DNA of 23,376 bases from contig JAPTVL010000208.1 of NCBI GenBank assembly GCA_028065725.1, positions 1 to 23,376 on the forward strand. Direction: 5' to 3'. The first letter of the stretch is position 1, and every line of letters begins with the position of its first letter. The DNA is from Betaproteobacteria bacterium (GTDB taxonomy: Bacteria > Pseudomonadota > Gammaproteobacteria > Burkholderiales > Rhodocyclaceae). The position numbers and the translations under genes are program-made. The notes beneath the pieces are model-generated. The model made no database searches. It worked only from the letters and a program-made list of their open reading frames with translations, and was not told the origin of the DNA. Positions 13,250-23,376 of this stretch are shown in pieces.

Positions 13250-14767
<1,518 letters not shown>

Positions 14768-14785
14768 GTTCTTGAAGGATTCCGA

Positions 14786-16408
14786 ATGAAGGATTTCGGC
14801 GAGTTCGACTACGTCATCGCCGGCGGCGGCACGGCCGGCTGCGTGCTGGCCAACCGCCTCTCGGCCGATCCCGAGGTCACGGTGCTGCTGCTGGAAGCCG
14901 GCGGCAAGGACGACTGGATCTGGATCCACATCCCGATCGGCTACCTGAAATGCATCAACAATCCGCGCACCGACTGGTGCTACAAGACCGAGGCCGAGCC
15001 GGGCCTCAACGGCCGTTCGATCATCTACGCGCGCGGCAAGGTGCTGGGCGGCTGCTCGTCGATCAACGGCATGCTCTACCTGCGCGGCCAGGTGCGCGAC
15101 TACGACGAGTGGGCGCGAATCACCGGCGATTCGCGCTGGAACTGGGACAGCGTGTTGCCGGTGTTCAAACAGAGCGAGGATTACTGGGGCGGCGCCGACG
15201 AAATGCACGGCGACCAGGGCGAATGGCGCGTCGAAAAGCAGCGTCTGCACTGGGACATCCTCGACCGCTATACCGAGGCGGCCAAGCAGGCCGGCATCCC
15301 GTTCAAGCAGGACTACAACCGCGGCGACAATTTCGGCATCGGCCACTTCGAGGTAAACCAGAAGAAGGGCGTACGCTGGAACGCCTCGAAAGCCATGCTG
15401 CGCCCGGTGCTGCACCGGCCCAACCTCAAGGTCGTCACCGGCGCGCTGATCGACAAGCTGGTCATGGACGGCAAGGAAGCGCGCGGCGTCGAGTTCAGCC
15501 TCAACGGTGTGCCGCACAAGGTCACGGCGCGCATCGAGACCCTGCTCACGGCCGGCGCCATCGGCTCGCCGACCATCCTGCAGCGGTCGGGCATCGGCCC
15601 TGCGGCGCTGCTGCAACAACATGGTGTGCCGCTGGTGCATGAAAGTCCCGGCGTCGGCGGCAACCTGCAGGACCACCTGCAGCTGCGCATGATCTTCAAG
15701 GTGCATGGCATCACCACGCTGAACCAGCGCGCCAACAGCCTCTGGGGCAAGGCGATGATGGGCCTCGAATACGCGCTGTTCCGCTCCGGGCCGCTGTCGA
15801 TGGCGCCGAGCCAGCTCGGCGGCTTTTTCCATTCCTCGCCCGAAGTTGCGACACCCGACCTCGAATTCCATGTTCAGCCGCTCTCGCTGAACAAGTTCGG
15901 CGAACCGCTGCACTCCTTCGCCGCCTTCACCGCGAGCGTCTGCAACCTGCGTCCGACCTCGCGCGGCGTGGTGCACATCCGCGACCGCGATCCGGCGACG
16001 GCGCCGGTCATCGCGCCGAATTACCTGTCGACCGACAACGACCGCCTGGTCGCCGCGCGCGCGCTGCGCCTGACGCGGCGCGTGGTCGAGCAGCCGGCCA
16101 TGGCGCCCTACCGGCCCGAGGAATACCAGCCCGGCGCACAAGCCCAGAGCGACGCGGAACTGGCCAAGGCCGCCGGCGACATCGGTACCACGATCTTCCA
16201 CCCCACCTGCACCTGCGCCATGGGCCGCGCCGACGATGCGAATGCCGTGGTCGATTCCGAGCTGCGCGTGCAGGGGATCGGCCGACTGCGCATAGTCGAT
16301 GCCTCGATCATGCCAACCATCACTTCGGGTAATACCAACGCACCAACCGTGATGATCGCCGAACGCGGCGCACAGCTGATCCGCACCGCACGACGCGGCC
16401 AGGCCTGA
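14786..16408 (+). CDS. GMC-family alcohol oxidoreductase (choline-dehydrogenase-like)
   Basis: The 540-residue FAD enzyme has the GMC pattern: FAD motif AGGGTAGCVLANRLS (~12-26) with LLLEAGG, the ARGKVLGGCSSINGMLYLRG signature, and AGAIGSPTILQRSGIGP (GMC signature 2). The C-terminal catalytic pair is His472 (IFHPTCTCAMG) and Asn516/Asn518 (SGNTNAPTVMIAE). Bacterial relatives oxidise primary or secondary alcohols such as choline, PEG, alkanols and sterol side chains. In most of them electrons go to a quinone or cytochrome rather than to oxygen. Placed between an acylating aldehyde dehydrogenase and a hydrolase, it most likely makes the aldehyde for MmsA. Substrate not known; no signal peptide is visible. 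Confidence 0.9.
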   Translation: MKDFGEFDYVIAGGGTAGCVLANRLSADPEVTVLLLEAGGKDDWIWIHIPIGYLKCINNPRTDWCYKTEAEPGLNGRSIIYARGKVLGGCSSINGMLYLRGQVRDYDEWARITGDSRWNWDSVLPVFKQSEDYWGGADEMHGDQGEWRVEKQRLHWDILDRYTEAAKQAGIPFKQDYNRGDNFGIGHFEVNQKKGVRWNASKAMLRPVLHRPNLKVVTGALIDKLVMDGKEARGVEFSLNGVPHKVTARIETLLTAGAIGSPTILQRSGIGPAALLQQHGVPLVHESPGVGGNLQDHLQLRMIFKVHGITTLNQRANSLWGKAMMGLEYALFRSGPLSMAPSQLGGFFHSSPEVATPDLEFHVQPLSLNKFGEPLHSFAAFTASVCNLRPTSRGVVHIRDRDPATAPVIAPNYLSTDNDRLVAARALRLTRRVVEQPAMAPYRPEEYQPGAQAQSDAELAKAAGDIGTTIFHPTCTCAMGRADDANAVVDSELRVQGIGRLRIVDASIMPTITSGNTNAPTVMIAERGAQLIRTARRGQA

Positions 16409-17481: not shown

Positions 17482-17524
17482 TTGTTCTGGATCAAATACC
17501 AGACAAGCCCGCTCGGGATATCCT
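17482..17524 (+). promoter_or_regulatory. FNR/DNR-type promoter of the heme-copper reductase operon
   Basis: TTGTT-CTGG-ATCAA (17482-17495) matches the FNR/DNR/NnrR consensus TTGAT-N4-ATCAA at 9 of 10 fixed bases. A TATCCT element at 17519-17524 is a plausible -10, predicting a start near 17530. That puts the box centre at about -41.5, the classic class II activator position. No other copy this good was seen before the other genes. Such boxes respond to low oxygen (FNR) or NO (DNR, NnrR), so the operon is probably induced under oxygen limitation or denitrification. The leader is about 66 bases to the first ATG at 17597. Confidence 0.7.
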
Positions 17525-17596: not shown

Positions 17597-17749
17597 ATGG
17601 CGAATAACAATGACGACGACGATGTTCCATTCATGCAGAAGTTGCTGGACAACCACTTCCTGCTCCTGTTCCTGGGGGTAGCGTCTCCCACGGTTCTTTA
17701 TATCTTGTGGGGCGTCGTGGACATCATGAGTGTCCCCCTCGCCAAGTAA
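17597..17749 (+). CDS. 50-aa single-TM protein, candidate subunit IIa
   Basis: This short protein of 50 residues has an acidic start (NNNDDDDVPF) and one membrane helix (about 19-41, LLLFLGVASPTVLYILWGVVDIM). A GAGGG ribosome site lies 7 bases before the ATG. It is the first gene of the reductase operon, 27 bases before the CuA subunit. Its size, single helix and position match the small extra subunit (IIa, CbaD) of Thermus-type ba3 oxidases, which fills the missing second helix of subunit II. Assignment is by position and topology, not by sequence motif. Confidence 0.65.
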   Translation: MANNNDDDDVPFMQKLLDNHFLLLFLGVASPTVLYILWGVVDIMSVPLAK

Positions 17750-17776: not shown

Positions 17777-18316
17777 ATGAGCGCAATCCTGCCGCCTTCA
17801 GAGCGGTTGTGGTGGAAACAGCCGATCGCCGGTCAAGAGTGGGCCTGGATCGGTATCGCCTTCGTCTGGGCCATGATCATGTTCGTCATGATGGTCTATT
17901 GGCACATCAACGGTAAGCAGAACCTCTCGAACGAGGTTTACAAGACCACCACCGAGATGTTCACGGCCAAGACGGAAGCCTTCGTCAAGGAAAACACCAT
18001 CCGTACCGAGACCGACCAGCAGATTCCGGTCGCCAAGCCGAACGCCAACGGCGAAGCCTGGCTGCTGGCCCGCCTCTGGTCCTGGTATCCGATCCTGGAA
18101 CTGGAAGCCGGCAAGACCTACAAGATCCACCTGTCGGCGGTCGACTACAACCACGGCTTCTCGCTGCAGCCGACCAACATCAACATCCAGGTCATCCCCG
18201 GCTACGAGCACGTGGTCAAGATGACGCCGACCAAGGCGGGCACTTACGCCATCGTCTGCAACGAATACTGCGGCATCGGGCACCACACGATGCTCGGCCG
18301 TATCTACGTGAAATAA
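17777..18316 (+). CDS. CuA-binding subunit II of heme-copper reductase (NorS/CoxB-like)
   Basis: The 179-residue subunit has one N-terminal membrane helix (~22-45, EWAWIGIAFVWAMIMFVMMVYW) and a periplasmic cupredoxin domain. The CuA ligands are complete: His126 (YNHGFS) and Cys161, Cys165, His169, Met172 in CNEYCGIGHHTM, with Glu163 as the usual backbone ligand. It would take electrons from a soluble cytochrome c or cupredoxin and pass them to subunit I. The short, single-TM form is typical of B-family (ba3-type) oxidases and of NorS-like subunits rather than two-TM aa3 CoxB. An AGGGAG ribosome site lies 9 bases before the ATG. Confidence 0.93.
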   Translation: MSAILPPSERLWWKQPIAGQEWAWIGIAFVWAMIMFVMMVYWHINGKQNLSNEVYKTTTEMFTAKTEAFVKENTIRTETDQQIPVAKPNANGEAWLLARLWSWYPILELEAGKTYKIHLSAVDYNHGFSLQPTNINIQVIPGYEHVVKMTPTKAGTYAIVCNEYCGIGHHTMLGRIYVK

Positions 18317-18328
18317 GGGGAGCAACAG

Positions 18329-20026
18329 ATGGCAACTACTTACCGTACCTGTCCGCGCACCGGGCTGCAGTTCGACCTCGATGCCGACAAGCTGATGCGC
18401 TGGAACGCCGTAGCCGGCGTGCTCTGGCTGCTGGTGGGCGGCATCACCGCCCTCTTGGTGATCCTGACCCGCTGGCCGGCGATCAAGCTGCTGCCGGCCG
18501 ACCAGTTCTACCTGATCCTGACCGCGCACGGCATCGACATGCTGATCCTGTGGATCATCTTCTTCGAAATGGCGGTGCTCTACTTCGCCTCATCGACCCT
18601 GCTGCGATGCCGAATCGCCACGCCATGGCTGGGCTGGGTGCAGTTCTGGCTGATGGTCGTCGGCGGCATCATGACCAACGTCGCCATCTTCCAGGGCGAG
18701 TCGAGCGTGATGTTCACCTCCTACGTACCGATGCAGGCCGCGCCGCACTTCTACCTCGGCATCATCCTGTTCGCCGTGGGTGCGCTGATCGGCTGCGGCG
18801 TGTTCTTCGGCACGCTGGTGGTCGCCAAGCGCGAGAAGACCTACACCGGTTCGCTGCCGCTGGTGACGTTCGGCGCCATGACCGCGGCGATCATCGCCGT
18901 ATTCACCATCGCCTCCGGTGCCGCGATCCTGATCCCGACCTTCGCCTGGTCGATGGGCTGGATCAAGGAAATCGACGCCCAGCTGTATCGCATGGTGTGG
19001 TGGGCGCTGGGTCACTCCTCGCAGCAGATCAACGTCTCTGCCCACGTCTCGATCTGGTATCTGGTCGCTGCCGTGGCCTTCGGCGCCAAGCCGCTGTCCG
19101 AGAAAGTGTCGCGCTTCGCCTTCCTGCTCTACATCCTGTTCCTGCAACTGGCCAGCGCGCACCATCTGCTGTCCGACCCGGGCATGAGCGCGGAGTGGAA
19201 GGTGCTGAACACCTCCTACTTCATGTACTTCGCGGTACTGGCCTCGATGATCCACGGCTTCACGGTTCCGGGTGCGATCGAAGCAGCCCAGCGCAAGAAG
19301 GGCTTCAACAACGGCCTGTTCGAGTGGCTGCGCAAGGCACCCTGGGGCAGCCCGGTGTTCTCGGGCATGTTCATCTCGCTGGTCGGCTTCGGCTTCATCG
19401 GCGGCATCTCCGGCGTCGTGCTGGGTACCGAGCAGATCAACATGCTGATGCACAACACCTTCTACGTGCCGGGCCACTTCCACGCCACGGTCGTCGTCGG
19501 TACCACGCTGGCCTTCATGTCGATCACCTATCTGCTGGTGCCGACGCTGTTCAAGCGCGAAATGATGTTCCCCAAGCTGTGCCAGATCCAGCCCTACCTC
19601 TACGGCCTCAGCATGATCGTGCTGTCGCTGGTGATGATGGGCGCCGGCACGCTGGGCGTATCGCGCCGGCACTGGGACATGGCCTTCTCGGGCGCACCGT
19701 TCCAGTATGAATGGCCGGGTGCGGCTTACCTGATGATGGGTCTTACCGGCATCTTCGGCGTGATCGCGGTCATCGGCGGCGGTCTGTGGATCTTCCTGGT
19801 GGTCTGGTCCCTGCTGTTCGGCAAGAAGCTCGACGGTGGTGCGGCACACGACAAGCCGGTACCGATCCCCGACCAGAGCGCGGCGGCCGCCGCGTCCCAC
19901 ACCGGCAGCGCCGACCACGTTGGCGTACCGGGTACGGTGGTACTGGCCATGACGCTGCTGGTCTGCTTCGTGCTCTACTACTTCGTGAATTGGAAGTACC
20001 TGTCCGAGGTATGGGGTCTGAGCTGA
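18329..20026 (+). CDS. Heme-copper reductase subunit I, putative NO reductase (NorY-like)
   Basis: The 565-residue multi-spanning protein has the length of Thermus-type B-family subunit I. All metal ligands are present: His67 (TAHG) and His385 for the low-spin heme, His383 for the high-spin heme (VPGHFHA), and His229, His278, His279 for CuB (LGHSSQQ; SAHHLL). The His-x3-Tyr whose tyrosine is crosslinked to CuB His in oxygen reductases is missing: the His+4 residue is Gln233. That residue is essential for O2 chemistry and is lost in nitric oxide reductases. So this is probably an NO reductase derived from a B-family oxidase, like the NorSY/sNOR type described in ammonia oxidisers. Automated naming would call it a cbb3-type or cytochrome c oxidase. 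Fold certain; NO activity is inference. Confidence 0.85.
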   Translation: MATTYRTCPRTGLQFDLDADKLMRWNAVAGVLWLLVGGITALLVILTRWPAIKLLPADQFYLILTAHGIDMLILWIIFFEMAVLYFASSTLLRCRIATPWLGWVQFWLMVVGGIMTNVAIFQGESSVMFTSYVPMQAAPHFYLGIILFAVGALIGCGVFFGTLVVAKREKTYTGSLPLVTFGAMTAAIIAVFTIASGAAILIPTFAWSMGWIKEIDAQLYRMVWWALGHSSQQINVSAHVSIWYLVAAVAFGAKPLSEKVSRFAFLLYILFLQLASAHHLLSDPGMSAEWKVLNTSYFMYFAVLASMIHGFTVPGAIEAAQRKKGFNNGLFEWLRKAPWGSPVFSGMFISLVGFGFIGGISGVVLGTEQINMLMHNTFYVPGHFHATVVVGTTLAFMSITYLLVPTLFKREMMFPKLCQIQPYLYGLSMIVLSLVMMGAGTLGVSRRHWDMAFSGAPFQYEWPGAAYLMMGLTGIFGVIAVIGGGLWIFLVVWSLLFGKKLDGGAAHDKPVPIPDQSAAAAASHTGSADHVGVPGTVVLAMTLLVCFVLYYFVNWKYLSEVWGLS

Positions 20027-20158: not shown

Positions 20159-21049
20159 ATGGAATCGACGCTGCCCACCAAATCGTCTCCCGGCCTGACA
20201 TTGCGGGCCATCGCCGGAGTCTTCAAGCTGCGCATCGGCGTAGTCATCACCTTTACCGCACTGGCCGGCCTTTCGGTCAGCGGCGGACCCAGCCTGAGCC
20301 TGGCGCAACTCGTCACGCTGACCCTGGCGGTGCTGGTTTCCTCGGCCAGCGCCGGCGCCTTCAACCAGTATTACGAACACGACACCGATCCCCTGATGTC
20401 GCGTACCAAAAACCGCCCCTTCGCCACCGGCGAAATTCAGCACGGCCCGGTCTGGCTGGTCATCATCTTCGGCCTGATGGCCGTGTCGGTTGCCGCGGCC
20501 TGGGTCGCACTGAATGCGTGGGCGGCATTGTTCACCTTCCTCGGCGCCTTCTTCTACGCCATCGTCTATACGGTGTGGCTCAAGCGCCGCACCTGGCTCA
20601 ACATCGTCTTCGGCGGACTGGCCGGCAGCTGGGCCGTGCTGGCCGGCGCCACTGCCGCCGATCCGCAGGTCGGCGCGGTGCCGCTGACGCTGGCCTTCGT
20701 GCTCTTCCTGTGGACGCCGCCGCACTTCTGGAGCCTGGCCATCGCCTACCGCGACGACTACGCCGCGGCCGGCGTACCGATGCTGCCGGTGGTGGTCGGC
20801 GACCAGCGCGCGGCCAAGGCGATTTTCGGCAGCACCCTGCTGCTGGTGGCGGCTTCCCTGCTGCCGCTGGCCTTCGGCCTCGGCGCGGTCTATTTCGCCG
20901 GTGCCGCGGTCGGCGGCTTCCTGTTCATCCAGAAGGCCTGGCGCCTGGTGCAGAACACCAATCGCGAGACGGCGATGACCTGTTTCCATGCCTCGCTGGC
21001 TCAGTTGACTCTGGTTCTGACTGCTGCAATCATCGACGCCCGCTTCTAG
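20159..21049 (+). CDS. ctaB: Protoheme IX farnesyltransferase (heme O synthase)
   Basis: This 296-residue integral membrane UbiA-family prenyltransferase joins farnesyl diphosphate to heme b, making heme O for terminal oxidases. Both Mg/diphosphate motifs are visible: NQYYEHDTDPLMSRTKNRP near residue 65-85 and YRDDYAAAGVPMLPVV. About eight or nine hydrophobic helices follow. The ATG at 20159 gives the usual length; an in-frame TTG at 20084 lies in a hairpin loop. Being in this operon suggests that subunit I, or another oxidase in the cell, uses a farnesylated heme. No ctaA gene for the heme O to A step is in the window. This is the main point against a plain heme-b NO reductase. Confidence 0.93.
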   Translation: MESTLPTKSSPGLTLRAIAGVFKLRIGVVITFTALAGLSVSGGPSLSLAQLVTLTLAVLVSSASAGAFNQYYEHDTDPLMSRTKNRPFATGEIQHGPVWLVIIFGLMAVSVAAAWVALNAWAALFTFLGAFFYAIVYTVWLKRRTWLNIVFGGLAGSWAVLAGATAADPQVGAVPLTLAFVLFLWTPPHFWSLAIAYRDDYAAAGVPMLPVVVGDQRAAKAIFGSTLLLVAASLLPLAFGLGAVYFAGAAVGGFLFIQKAWRLVQNTNRETAMTCFHASLAQLTLVLTAAIIDARF

Positions 21050-21064
21050 CTAGGGCTTCACCCC

Positions 21065-21970
21065 GTGATTCATTCCATGTTCCGTGCCGCGCTCGCGGCA
21101 CTCGTGCTTGCCGCGGCGCCAGGAGTCGGCGCCGGCGACACGCCGAAGGAAAACCCCGCCCCCGCGTCCACGCCTGCGCCCGGCCTTACCGCGGTGCCGC
21201 AGGGCGCCCGCACCGGCCTGACGCTGACCACGCTCGACAACAAGGCGGCATTCGAGTTGTCGCAGGGCGTCATCGGCAAGCCGGTAGGCGACCATGTCCT
21301 GCTCGACCGCCAGGGGCGTCCGACGCGGCTTGCGAATTACCGCGGCAAGCCGCTGCTGGTGAATTTCATCTACACCGCCTGCTTCCAGGTCTGCCCCACC
21401 ACTACCAAGAACCTGCAGAAGGCCGTCGAAAATACCGTTGGCATGCTCGGCGCCAACCGCTTCAACGTGGTCAGCATCGGCTTCAACCAGCCTTTCGATT
21501 CGCCCGAAGCGATGAAATCCTTTGCCCAGCAGCACGGCATCCACCTGCCCAACTGGGAGTTCCTCAGCCCCGCCGCGGCCATCGTCGACGAGCTGACGCA
21601 GAACTTCGGCTTCAGTTTTGTTTCCACCACCGCCGGTTTCGACCACCTGAACCAGGTCACCATCGTCGATGCCGAGGGCCGCATATTCAGGCAGATCTAT
21701 GGCGAAAAATTTACCGCCGCGGATCTGGCGGAACCGCTCAAGGCGATGATCACCGGCGCGCCGATTCCGCCGCAGACCAGCACCCTGGCGGAGCTGGTCG
21801 ACCGCGTCCGGATCATCTGCTCGGTGTATGACCCGATCAGCGGCAAGTACCGCACCAACTACGCACTGTATTTCGAAGTCGCCGGCTTCATCAGCTTCAC
21901 CTTCTTCATGATGTGGGTAGGCTGGAGCTTCATGCGCAAGCGCCGCGACGAGAAGATTCAATCGGGTTGA
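21065..21970 (+). CDS. SCO/SenC-type copper chaperone
   Basis: The 301-residue protein is of the SCO1/SenC family, which delivers copper to CuA or keeps its cysteines reduced. It has an N-terminal signal sequence (LAALVLAAAPGVGAG), then a thioredoxin-like domain with Cys106-x3-Cys110-Pro (YTACFQVCPTTT) and the copper ligand His194 (GFDHLNQ). Unlike common SCOs, which are anchored at the N-terminus, it also has a C-terminal membrane helix (~268-290) ending in positive residues (MRKRRDEK). The GTG start at 21065 could be replaced by ATG at 21077. It follows ctaB by 15 bases. A SenC gene also accompanies the norSY genes of ammonia oxidisers, which fits the NorSY-like reading. Confidence 0.9.
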   Translation: MIHSMFRAALAALVLAAAPGVGAGDTPKENPAPASTPAPGLTAVPQGARTGLTLTTLDNKAAFELSQGVIGKPVGDHVLLDRQGRPTRLANYRGKPLLVNFIYTACFQVCPTTTKNLQKAVENTVGMLGANRFNVVSIGFNQPFDSPEAMKSFAQQHGIHLPNWEFLSPAAAIVDELTQNFGFSFVSTTAGFDHLNQVTIVDAEGRIFRQIYGEKFTAADLAEPLKAMITGAPIPPQTSTLAELVDRVRIICSVYDPISGKYRTNYALYFEVAGFISFTFFMMWVGWSFMRKRRDEKIQSG

Positions 21971-22064
21971 TGCGAGTCAAGTCGGGACGCGGCCGACTTA
22001 TATATCATCAACCGCTAATAGTCGGCGGTCGTCTCCTAGTACCGACGTTACGGAATCTCCCAAC

Positions 22065-23376
22065 GTGAGCTTGCACGCAGTCTTGCGCGGCAACGCGCGA
22101 ACCCTCTTCGAAAACGTCGAGAACCTGTTCGATGGATTTTTCGGCGGTGCCGACAACCCCCTGCGCCATCTGGGCGCACTGGGCCTGTTCTGCCTCTGGA
22201 TCCTGGTCGCCACCGGGCTCTATCTCTACACGGTGCTGGACACCAGCATCGAAGGTGTCTACAGGTCGATCGGCGACCTGTCGCGCGAGCAGTGGTATCT
22301 CGGCGGCGTGCTGCGCAGCCTGCACCGCTACGCCGCCGACGCCTTCGTGCTGATGATGCTGCTGCACCTGATCCGCGAATGGGCCTACGGCCGCTACCAC
22401 GGCTTCCGCCTGTATTCATGGGTCACCGGCGTGCCGCTGATCTGGCTCGCCTACATCTCGGGCATCGGCGGCTACTGGATCACCTGGGATCGCCTGGCGC
22501 AGTTCTCCGCCGTCGCCACCACAGAGCTGCTCGACTGGCTGCCGATTTTCAGCGAACCGAGCGCGCGCAACTTCCTCGCCCCGGATTCGATCAACGACCG
22601 CTTTTTCACGGTGCTGGTGTTCATCCACATCGGCGTACCGCTGATGCTGGTACTCGGCCTCTGGGCCCATGTCAATCGCATCAGCCGGGTGGATTACCTG
22701 CCGTCGCGCCGCGTGATGCTGGCCACCCTGGCCAGCTTCCTGCTGCTCGCGGCGATCAAGCCGGCGCTGTCCGACGCGCCCGCCGACCTGGCCCTGGTGC
22801 CGGCCGAGATCCGCCTCGACTGGTTCATGATGTTCATCCACCCGCTGACCGACCTCACTTCGCCGGCCGCGATGTGGACGCTGATCTTCGGCGCCACGCT
22901 GCTGCTCTTCGCCCTGCCCTTCCGGCCCCATGCGCAGGCGCGGCCGATTGCCGTGGTCGATGCGGCCAACTGCAACGGCTGCGCCCGCTGCCACGTCGAT
23001 TGCCCCTACGAGGCGATCACCATGGCGCCGCATCCGTACAAGCCGAATCACCGCATCGCCATCGTCGATGCCGACCATTGCGCCGGCTGCGGCATCTGTG
23101 CCGGCGCCTGCCCGTCATCAACCCCGTTCCGCAGCCAGGAACGGCTGGTGACCGGCATCGACATGCCGCAGCAACCGGTCGACGTGATGCGCCAGCAACT
23201 CGAAGCGAAGGTGACGCAGCTGTCCGGCAGCACCAAACTGGTCGTCTTCGGTTGCGCCCAAGGCGCCGATGTCGGCGCGCTCGCAGCAGCCGACACCGCC
23301 ACGCTGAGCCTGATCTGCACCGGCATGCTGCCGCCCTCCTTCATCGAATACGCGCTGCGCAGCGGCGTCGATGGCA
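22065..23376 (+). CDS. Cytochrome b / 2x[4Fe-4S] / MvhD-like fusion (partial)
   Basis: This 3'-truncated gene has at least 437 codons from the GTG at 22065, with a weak ribosome site. Residues ~25-290 form a diheme cytochrome b with histidine pairs His87/His101 and His188/His202, 14 residues apart, as in the cytochrome b of bc complexes. Next come two ferredoxin motifs, CNGCARCHVDCP and CAGCGICAGACP. The C-terminal part (KLVVFGCAQGADV, LICTGMLPPSFIEYALRSGVDG) resembles the MvhD/FlpD domain that passes electrons in Hdr complexes. It lies 94 bases after the SCO gene. The likely job is electron exchange between the quinone pool and a soluble carrier, possibly feeding the reductase. This is inference, since the end is missing. 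Confidence 0.82.
   Translation, partial: MSLHAVLRGNARTLFENVENLFDGFFGGADNPLRHLGALGLFCLWILVATGLYLYTVLDTSIEGVYRSIGDLSREQWYLGGVLRSLHRYAADAFVLMMLLHLIREWAYGRYHGFRLYSWVTGVPLIWLAYISGIGGYWITWDRLAQFSAVATTELLDWLPIFSEPSARNFLAPDSINDRFFTVLVFIHIGVPLMLVLGLWAHVNRISRVDYLPSRRVMLATLASFLLLAAIKPALSDAPADLALVPAEIRLDWFMMFIHPLTDLTSPAAMWTLIFGATLLLFALPFRPHAQARPIAVVDAANCNGCARCHVDCPYEAITMAPHPYKPNHRIAIVDADHCAGCGICAGACPSSTPFRSQERLVTGIDMPQQPVDVMRQQLEAKVTQLSGSTKLVVFGCAQGADVGALAAADTATLSLICTGMLPPSFIEYALRSGVDG

What the first reader, a model, noticed from the sequence alone, without database searches (positions are those of the whole stretch)
18329..20026. Heme-copper subunit I with glutamine in place of the active-site tyrosine
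All six metal-ligand histidines are present (67, 229, 278, 279, 383, 385), but His+4 after the first CuB ligand is Gln233, not Tyr. Oxygen reductases need a Tyr near CuB. B-family length, a complete CuA subunit II and a SenC neighbour point to a NorSY/sNOR-like NO reductase that annotation pipelines would mislabel as cytochrome c oxidase. A caveat is ctaB in the same operon. A tyrosine supplied from another helix, as in C-family oxidases, is not excluded.
Basis: partly seen in the sequence, partly recalled or inferred. Interest (0 to 1): 0.85.

Follow-up and report, generated by a model that had tools for sequence, protein, structure and literature searches.

The report
Misnamed nitric oxide reductase, eNOR type
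A gene that databases call cytochrome c oxidase has a glutamine where oxygen-reducing enzymes have an essential tyrosine, and its relatives and gene neighbours point to a nitric oxide reductase of the already described eNOR family that may fill a missing step in several well-known denitrifying bacteria.

Summary
In detail: the 565-aa subunit I at 18329-20026 has all six ligand histidines and Gln233 at the CuB-tyrosine position. It is a family trait: Gln in the 80 closest genome loci plus one plasmid copy (81 of 81) and in 240 of 240 listed homologues. The sNOR label is wrong: a published table gives sNOR Asn and eNOR Gln (PMC8756737), and a NorSY-SenC-like locus I read has Asn. Gln proteins form one clade (100/99), apart from Tyr-bearing ba3-type oxidases (97/96) and that sNOR. 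Among 300 Burkholderiales genomes, 22 of 23 carriers have a cd1-type (PF02239) gene versus 56 of 277 others (p = 2e-13); 14 of the 23 showed no cNOR or qNOR. Best reading: an eNOR, a known family, mislabelled as an oxidase. The interest is in consequences: it is a NOR candidate in Ca. Desulfobacillus denitrificans (published as lacking NOR), in Accumulibacter (probably its 'ba3 oxidase') and in two Ca. Nitricoxid- NO reducers. No activity was measured, and a tyrosine from helix VIII is not excluded (no coordinates).

The parts
17482..17495 (+). FNR/DNR-like box TTGTTCTGGATCAA, about 100 bases upstream of the small ORF
   Evidence: One mismatch to TTGAT-N4-ATCAA; two such matches in the window against 0.23 expected by shuffles; a box with at most 1 mismatch in 35 of 77 upstream regions (window included) against 2% of random 300-base stretches of the same loci
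17597..17749 (+). 50-aa ORF with one membrane helix (judged by eye), probable small subunit
   Evidence: A homologue precedes subunit II in 71 of 71 close loci with enough upstream sequence; no Pfam or NCBIfam match
17777..18316 (+). Subunit II with CuA motif (CNEYCGIGHHTM)
   Evidence: Pfam COX2 9.6e-5; present in 71 of 71 close loci with enough upstream sequence; motif read in the translation
18329..20026 (+). Heme-copper subunit I, eNOR type, Gln233 at the CuB-tyrosine position
   Evidence: Pfam COX1 3.5e-64; motif and ligands; tree; fold
20159..21049 (+). ctaB/cyoE, heme O synthase (296 aa; the ORF list's start 20084 is probably too early)
   Evidence: TIGR01473 9.2e-79 above its cut-off; start by comparison with the homologues in L154 and L034
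21065..21970 (+). SCO1/SenC-like copper assembly protein
   Evidence: PF02630 9.2e-14; present in 58 of 58 close loci with enough downstream sequence
22065..23376 (+). Cytochrome b (N-terminal domain) fused to two 4Fe-4S clusters; cut by the window end (homologues continue into an FlpD domain)
   Evidence: PF00033 and Fer4 families; full-length homologue in L154 with FlpD 1.1e-14; FlpD part present in 49 of 58 close loci

Best explanation
The gene encodes the catalytic subunit of an eNOR: a heme-copper nitric oxide reductase derived from the B-family of oxygen reductases. Electrons enter at CuA of subunit II (from a cytochrome c or cupredoxin; inferred), pass over a low-spin heme (H67, H385; by homology) to the high-spin heme (H383) and CuB (H229, H278, H279), where two NO become N2O. 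Gln233 stands where O2 reductases have the His-linked tyrosine that helps to cleave the O-O bond; making N2O does not need it (general knowledge of NORs, recalled). Protons probably come from the cytoplasm along a K-channel-like path, of which S306, H309 and Y244 are invariant (inference). In the cell it removes or respires the NO made by cd1 nitrite reductase NirS, under FNR/DNR-like control. Shown here: sequence, clade, gene order, co-occurrence with cd1-type genes, no recognised other NOR in many carriers. Inferred: substrate, proton path, donor, energy gain.
For: Gln trait constant and equal to the tabulated eNOR signature (PMC8756737); clade 100/99 with Ardenticatenales, Thermomicrobium and Thermus homologues, apart from Tyr-bearing B-family. 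A Thermus homologue lies on a plasmid about 3.6 kb from nirS. 22 of 23 carriers in 300 Burkholderiales genomes have a PF02239 gene at E <= 1e-100 vs 56 of 277 (p 2e-13); within ten families 18 of 19 vs 2 of 49 listed non-carriers; a PF02239 gene within 20 kb in 9 of 23 (lower bound). No cNOR/qNOR in 14 of 23. FNR/DNR-like box.
Against: No enzyme assay; no coordinates to exclude Y297 or Y300 near CuB. 9 of 23 carriers also have cNOR or qNOR. nosZ is not enriched (5 of 23 vs 43 of 277). ctaA lies nearby in 46 loci, as in oxidase loci. In Accumulibacter UW-LDO-IC the 'ba3' genes, probably this enzyme, changed little over the cycle and clustered with aa3 as repressed by FNR and higher with oxygen, though in UW-1 they were high anaerobically and fell on aeration (PMC6446978). 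No named, assayed eNOR sequence was at hand for the tree.
Confidence: 0.82

Rival explanations
1. It is an oxygen reductase (ba3-like) that works without, or with a relocated, active-site tyrosine.
For: Closest solved sequences and Foldseek matches are ba3 oxidases; Y297 and Y300 are invariant in 60 of 60; ctaB/SCO and often ctaA neighbours; oxygen-linked transcription of the probable orthologue in UW-LDO-IC.
Against: No Tyr at the canonical position in the relatives of this clade nor at the C-family position; separate clade from Tyr-bearing B-family; strong tie to cd1-type genes; closed genome G003 already has two A-type and one cbb3 oxidase.
Confidence: 0.1
2. It is a NorSY-type sNOR, as first proposed.
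For: CuA subunit II, subunit I and a SCO/SenC gene in the same order as in the AMO-bearing genome locus L123.
Against: sNOR has Asn (HVVIN in L123 and HVFIN in L149); L123 falls outside the Gln clade (one row, long branch); G001 holds both the sNOR-like L149 and the eNOR-type gene, so the two are distinct genes, with the caution that G001 is rated 6% contaminated.
Confidence: 0.03
3. It handles NO in another way: an NO-sensing or NO-dismutating heme-copper protein, or a stand-by detoxifier without energy gain.
For: Activity unknown for the betaproteobacterial branch; 9 of 23 carriers have a second NOR.
Against: Ligands of all redox centres including CuA are intact; conserved K-channel-like residues; the family is called biochemically characterised as a NOR (PMC11388526).
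Confidence: 0.05

Closest known systems
eNOR family (putative members in PMC8756737; called biochemically characterised in PMC11388526, whose reference 22 I take to be Murali et al.)
   Same: Gln at the tyrosine position, cupredoxin subunit II upstream, derived from B-family oxygen reductases, mislabelled as cytochrome c oxidase, already reported in Betaproteobacteria including Gallionellaceae (PMC10734462)
   Different: Site motif of the betaproteobacterial rows is HSSQQ(I/V)N, that of the Thermus and Chloroflexota-type rows HGAQQ(I/V)N; operon carries SCO, usually cyoE, and mostly two cytochrome b fusion proteins
sNOR / NorSY of ammonia oxidisers
   Same: B-family-related, CuA subunit II, SCO/SenC neighbour, no active-site tyrosine
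   Different: Asn instead of Gln; distant in the tree; no cyoE between subunit I and SCO in L123
Thermus ba3 oxygen reductase (PDB 1xme and relatives)
   Same: Fold (Foldseek E 2.5e-20 to 1xme), six ligands, CuA subunit II, small extra subunit (recalled for ba3)
   Different: Tyr237 replaced by Gln233; by alignment (ba3 numbers recalled) Trp239 by Asn235 and Thr312 by His309
bNOR (CuANOR) of Bacillus
   Same: B-family-derived CuA-containing NO reductase
   Different: Asn at the site in the table of PMC8756737; reported only in Bacillota

Membership tests
eNOR | Gln at the CuB-tyrosine position | tested here: met
   Q233 in 81/81, 60/60 and 240/240; definition from PMC8756737 Table A4 and Fig. 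6 legend
eNOR | All six heme and CuB histidine ligands | tested here: met
   two Thermus plasmid homologues have Lys for the last one
eNOR | Cupredoxin (CuA) subunit II immediately upstream | tested here: met
   17777-18316
eNOR | Same clade as named, assayed eNORs | tested here: inconclusive
   Groups with Ardenticatenales, Thermomicrobium and Thermus homologues; Ardenticatena, a Thermus and a Rhodocyclaceae sequence figure in published eNOR reports, but the very R. marinus, A. maritima and Natronomonas sequences were not at hand
eNOR | One conserved proton channel | tested here: inconclusive
   S306, H309, Y244 invariant at K-channel-like positions; mapping to ba3 residues partly recalled
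eNOR | NO reductase activity | not testable with these tools
   Needs protein
sNOR (NorSY) | Asn at the CuB-tyrosine position | tested here: not met
   Gln233; L123 and L149 have Asn
sNOR (NorSY) | Groups with NorY | tested here: not met
   L123 outside the Gln clade (100/99), but on a long branch and one row only
B-family oxygen reductase (ba3) | Tyr four residues after the first CuB ligand | tested here: not met
   Gln in the window protein and its clade; Tyr in 15 of 15 B-family comparison rows
C-family oxygen reductase (cbb3) | Tyr on helix VII, six residues before the CuB His pair (position from recall; L115 shows it) | tested here: not met
   Residue 272 is L/I/V in 60 of 60
cNOR/qNOR | WWVVHLWVEG-type motif with Glu | tested here: not met
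   Motif absent from the window protein; present in the cNOR L139 and qNOR L146

The most novel reading that the evidence does not exclude
In NirS-type betaproteobacteria that lack cNOR and qNOR (most of the Sulfuritalea-like genomes searched, 4 of 9 Accumulibacter genomes checked, and possibly Ca. Desulfobacillus denitrificans), this eNOR is the main respiratory NO reductase, and its operon supplies its own electron-input proteins: a cytochrome b-ferredoxin-FlpD fusion and a cytochrome b-2Fe2S-flavin/NAD(P) reductase fusion. NO reduction would then be linked to NAD(P)H or ferredoxin through a b-cytochrome module that I know from no other NOR, and the view that these organisms stop at NO and feed it to neighbours would fall.
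Probability: 0.3. Interest if true: 0.7.

Novelty: new member of a known kind. Interest (0 to 1): 0.5.

Why it matters
A whole step of denitrification is hidden under the name 'cytochrome c oxidase' in environmentally important bacteria. Ca. Desulfobacillus denitrificans was published as lacking NO reductase and hence as a possible source of NO for anammox bacteria (PMC8402940, abstract and passages); its complete genome record holds a 74% identical copy (L065). An Accumulibacter paper reports norZ in only a few genomes and a little-understood 'ba3 oxidase' in all clades (PMC6446978); in the UW-LDO-IC genome the eNOR-type gene is, by elimination, the likely identity of that oxidase. The two NO-respiring Ca. 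Nitricoxid- bacteria were credited with cNOR for NO reduction (PMC10390337), yet both also hold this gene (P0009, L046). N2O and NO budgets inferred from gene content would change.

Tried and rejected

Limits of the counts. cNOR/qNOR absence means 'not found at E 1e-8 with one cNOR and one qNOR query' or 'no hit of that score and frame length' (most of these hits not read). G324 (Ca. D. denitrificans record) has two further weak heme-copper hits besides its oxidases, one of them similar in score and length to an odd protein read elsewhere, so eNOR is not proven to be its only candidate; G003 had no such hit except the divergent protein. The stratified test used only genomes that searches listed with a family label (49 non-carriers in ten families, compiled by hand); genomes without any listed match were left out. 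Family f1 (all nirS-positive among those listed), f12 and f30 (no listed non-carrier) were dropped. The PF02239 cut of E 1e-100 is mine and lets NirF/NirN pass; 21 of 23 carriers have a NirS-strength hit (E below 1e-140), G308 only a weaker one, G113 none. Of the 23 carriers I read the Gln motif in G001, G200, G051 and G105; the rest are taken as Gln-type from 64-72% identity to the window protein. The FNR-box control used random, mostly coding, stretches, and the 77 regions are related, so no p-value is claimed.

Full report
Observation. The window ORF 18329-20026 encodes 565 aa matching Pfam COX1 (3.5e-64). The NCBIfam oxidase models listed all score far below their cut-offs (best CtaD_CoxA, 64.7 of 670.75 bits), and public sources name relatives 'cytochrome c oxidase subunit 1' or 'cbb3-type cytochrome c oxidase subunit I'. 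The site reads GHSSQQIN. It is the same in the 80 genome loci returned plus a Defluviimonas plasmid copy (81 of 81; 568 genome stretches encoded relatives and the tool kept the best 80), and all 240 homologues listed by two protein searches (120 each; 8000 and 6011 proteins passed) carry H..QQ.N. So it is a family property.

What it is. [quoted passage not shown] a Rhodocyclaceae sequence is among those treated. PMC10734462 (passages) reports eNOR in Gallionellaceae. PMC11388526 (passages) counts eNOR among the biochemically characterised NORs. The primary paper (recalled as Murali et al., PNAS 2024) is not held under the identifier I tried. To test the sNOR label I looked for ammonia-oxidiser genomes in the same order by the AMO family (8 of 300) and found in one of these 8 (G076) a CuA subunit II - subunit I - SCO/SenC locus whose subunit I reads HVVIN, Asn at the site (L123); G001 holds a similar HVFIN protein (L149).

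Tree. A 47-row maximum-likelihood tree puts all 25 Gln rows in one clade (100/99; 100% of 200 bootstrap trees), all 15 Tyr B-family rows, including the two PDB ba3 oxidases, in another (97/96), and L123 elsewhere on a long branch. The tool warns that the join of three 'YH' rows with the Gln clade brings long branches together, so I draw nothing from that.

Active site and fold. In 60 rows (42-93% identity to the window protein) Q232, Q233, N235, Y244, S306, H309, Y297 and Y300 are invariant and the C-family tyrosine position is L/I/V. AlphaFold2 gave mean pLDDT 83.3; Foldseek ranks ba3 chains first, while VIA-align ties ba3 with A-type chains.

Genome context. In Burkholderiales, 25 of 300 genomes matched at E 1e-20; 23 of them at 64% identity or more, while the other 2 (and second hits in 2 of the 23) are 28-30% matches whose sites are Tyr-type or of the 'YH' kind. 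Of these 23, 22 have a PF02239 hit at E 1e-100 or better, against 56 of 277 others (Fisher p 2e-13); NirK 0 of 23 against 37 of 277; nosZ 5 of 23 against 43 of 277. Within ten families, 18 of 19 carriers against 2 of 49 listed non-carriers (stratified p 1.8e-10). In 9 of 23 a PF02239 gene lies within 20 kb (a lower bound because match lists were cut). cNOR or qNOR was found in 9 of the 23 and not in 14.

In the genus of the genome nearest the window (13 genomes), NirS-strength hits occur in 12, cNOR in none and a qNOR-like protein in 3, and a full or nearly full-length hit of eNOR score in 10 (motif read in G001, G003 and G009). The closed genome G003 has two A-type oxidases, one cbb3, the eNOR-type gene and one divergent protein, no cNOR or qNOR, and two NirS-strength genes.

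Operon. In the close loci with enough flank: small ORF 71 of 71, subunit II 71 of 71, SCO 58 of 58, cyoE 45 of 58, cytochrome b-4Fe4S-FlpD 49 of 58, a protein of about 195 aa without Pfam match 52 of 58, cytochrome b-2Fe2S-FAD/NAD reductase 49 of 58 (domains). The window ends inside the first cytochrome b gene, so the rest is unseen in the window itself. An FNR/DNR-like box with at most one mismatch lies upstream in 35 of 77 regions against 2% of random stretches, mostly 105-145 bases before the small ORF; the window has one at 17482-17495. PMC6446978 (section 9 and passages) also predicted FNR control of the Accumulibacter 'ba3' operon.

Consequences. Ca. Desulfobacillus denitrificans: the abstract and passages of PMC8402940 say it has all denitrification genes except NO reductase and may feed NO to anammox bacteria; its complete genome (AP021857.1) has this gene at 74% identity (L065). 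Its PF00115 list (G324) has no hit of NorB or qNOR score and length but two further weak hits, so the eNOR is a strong, not the only, candidate. Accumulibacter: PMC6446978 reports ba3 oxidase genes in all clades and norZ in only a few genomes; the UW-LDO-IC genome (L034, G313) has one A-type-sized, one cbb3-sized, one qNOR-sized, one eNOR-type and one weak hit, so its 'ba3' is most likely the eNOR-type protein, whose site is HSSQQ. Of nine Accumulibacter genomes checked, four show no qNOR- or cNOR-like hit by score and length (G316, G317, G318, G321). PMC12766714 (passages) found nirS in 122 MAGs and norB in 44. PMC7054561 (passages) likewise notes many Rhodocyclaceae genomes without norB. Ca. 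Nitricoxidivorans perseverans and Ca. Nitricoxidireducens bremensis: PMC10390337 (sections 10 and 11 read) credits cNOR for NO reduction and mentions two heme-copper oxidases; both organisms have this protein with the Gln site (P0009, L046). Searches for eNOR with Accumulibacter, or with cytochrome b and Rhodocyclaceae, found no held paper; the primary eNOR paper is not held, so I cannot say these cases are unreported.

Against the reading. In UW-LDO-IC the 'ba3' transcripts changed little and were grouped with aa3 as FNR-repressed, while in UW-1 they were high anaerobically and fell on aeration. 9 of 23 carriers have another NOR. No activity is known for this branch.

Verdict. A member of a known but easily missed family. 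The specialist surprise is modest; the consequence for published 'NOR-less' organisms and the unusual electron-input genes make it worth testing.

Noticed in passing
L051:6160-7557, L068:15600-16991, L048:15923-17266(-), L154:18593-19873(-): A second, divergent heme-copper-like protein near the eNOR operon in 26 loci: H76, GGGH223-x-LQF, H354, H356 and H401 the same in 26 of 26, but the helix VII CuB His pair is gone (Tyr273 in 26 of 26; a His283 in 25 of 26). None of five copies scanned matched an NCBIfam heme-copper model.
   Followed up: partly
window 22065-23376; L154:11642-13201 and 13886-15796: Two cytochrome b fusion proteins in the operon: one with two 4Fe-4S clusters and an FlpD domain, one with 2Fe-2S, FAD and NAD domains; possible dedicated electron input.
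   Followed up: partly
L083, L090 (Thermus thermophilus plasmids): Gln-type homologues with HFK instead of HFH: Lys replaces the expected low-spin heme ligand; nirS (L083) or a multicopper oxidase gene (L090) nearby.
   Followed up: no
L150 (G009), L153 (G001): Another unusual heme-copper protein with Glu at the tyrosine position (AHNLME) and GHTMT instead of GHFH; hits of similar score and length, not read, in other genomes including G324.
   Followed up: no
L093, L099, L101: B-family-like proteins with LFHN(L/M)HY, LYHM and PGYFH: some ligand histidines replaced.
   Followed up: no
L123 and L149 (G001): sNOR-type proteins (Asn at the site); G001 seems to carry both sNOR and eNOR types, though it is rated 6% contaminated.
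   Followed up: partly
L065 (AP021857.1): Ca. Desulfobacillus denitrificans, published as lacking NO reductase, holds the eNOR-type gene.
   Followed up: partly
window 21967-21980: A second one-mismatch TTGAT-N4-ATCAA match, between the SCO and cytochrome b genes; could be chance.
   Followed up: no
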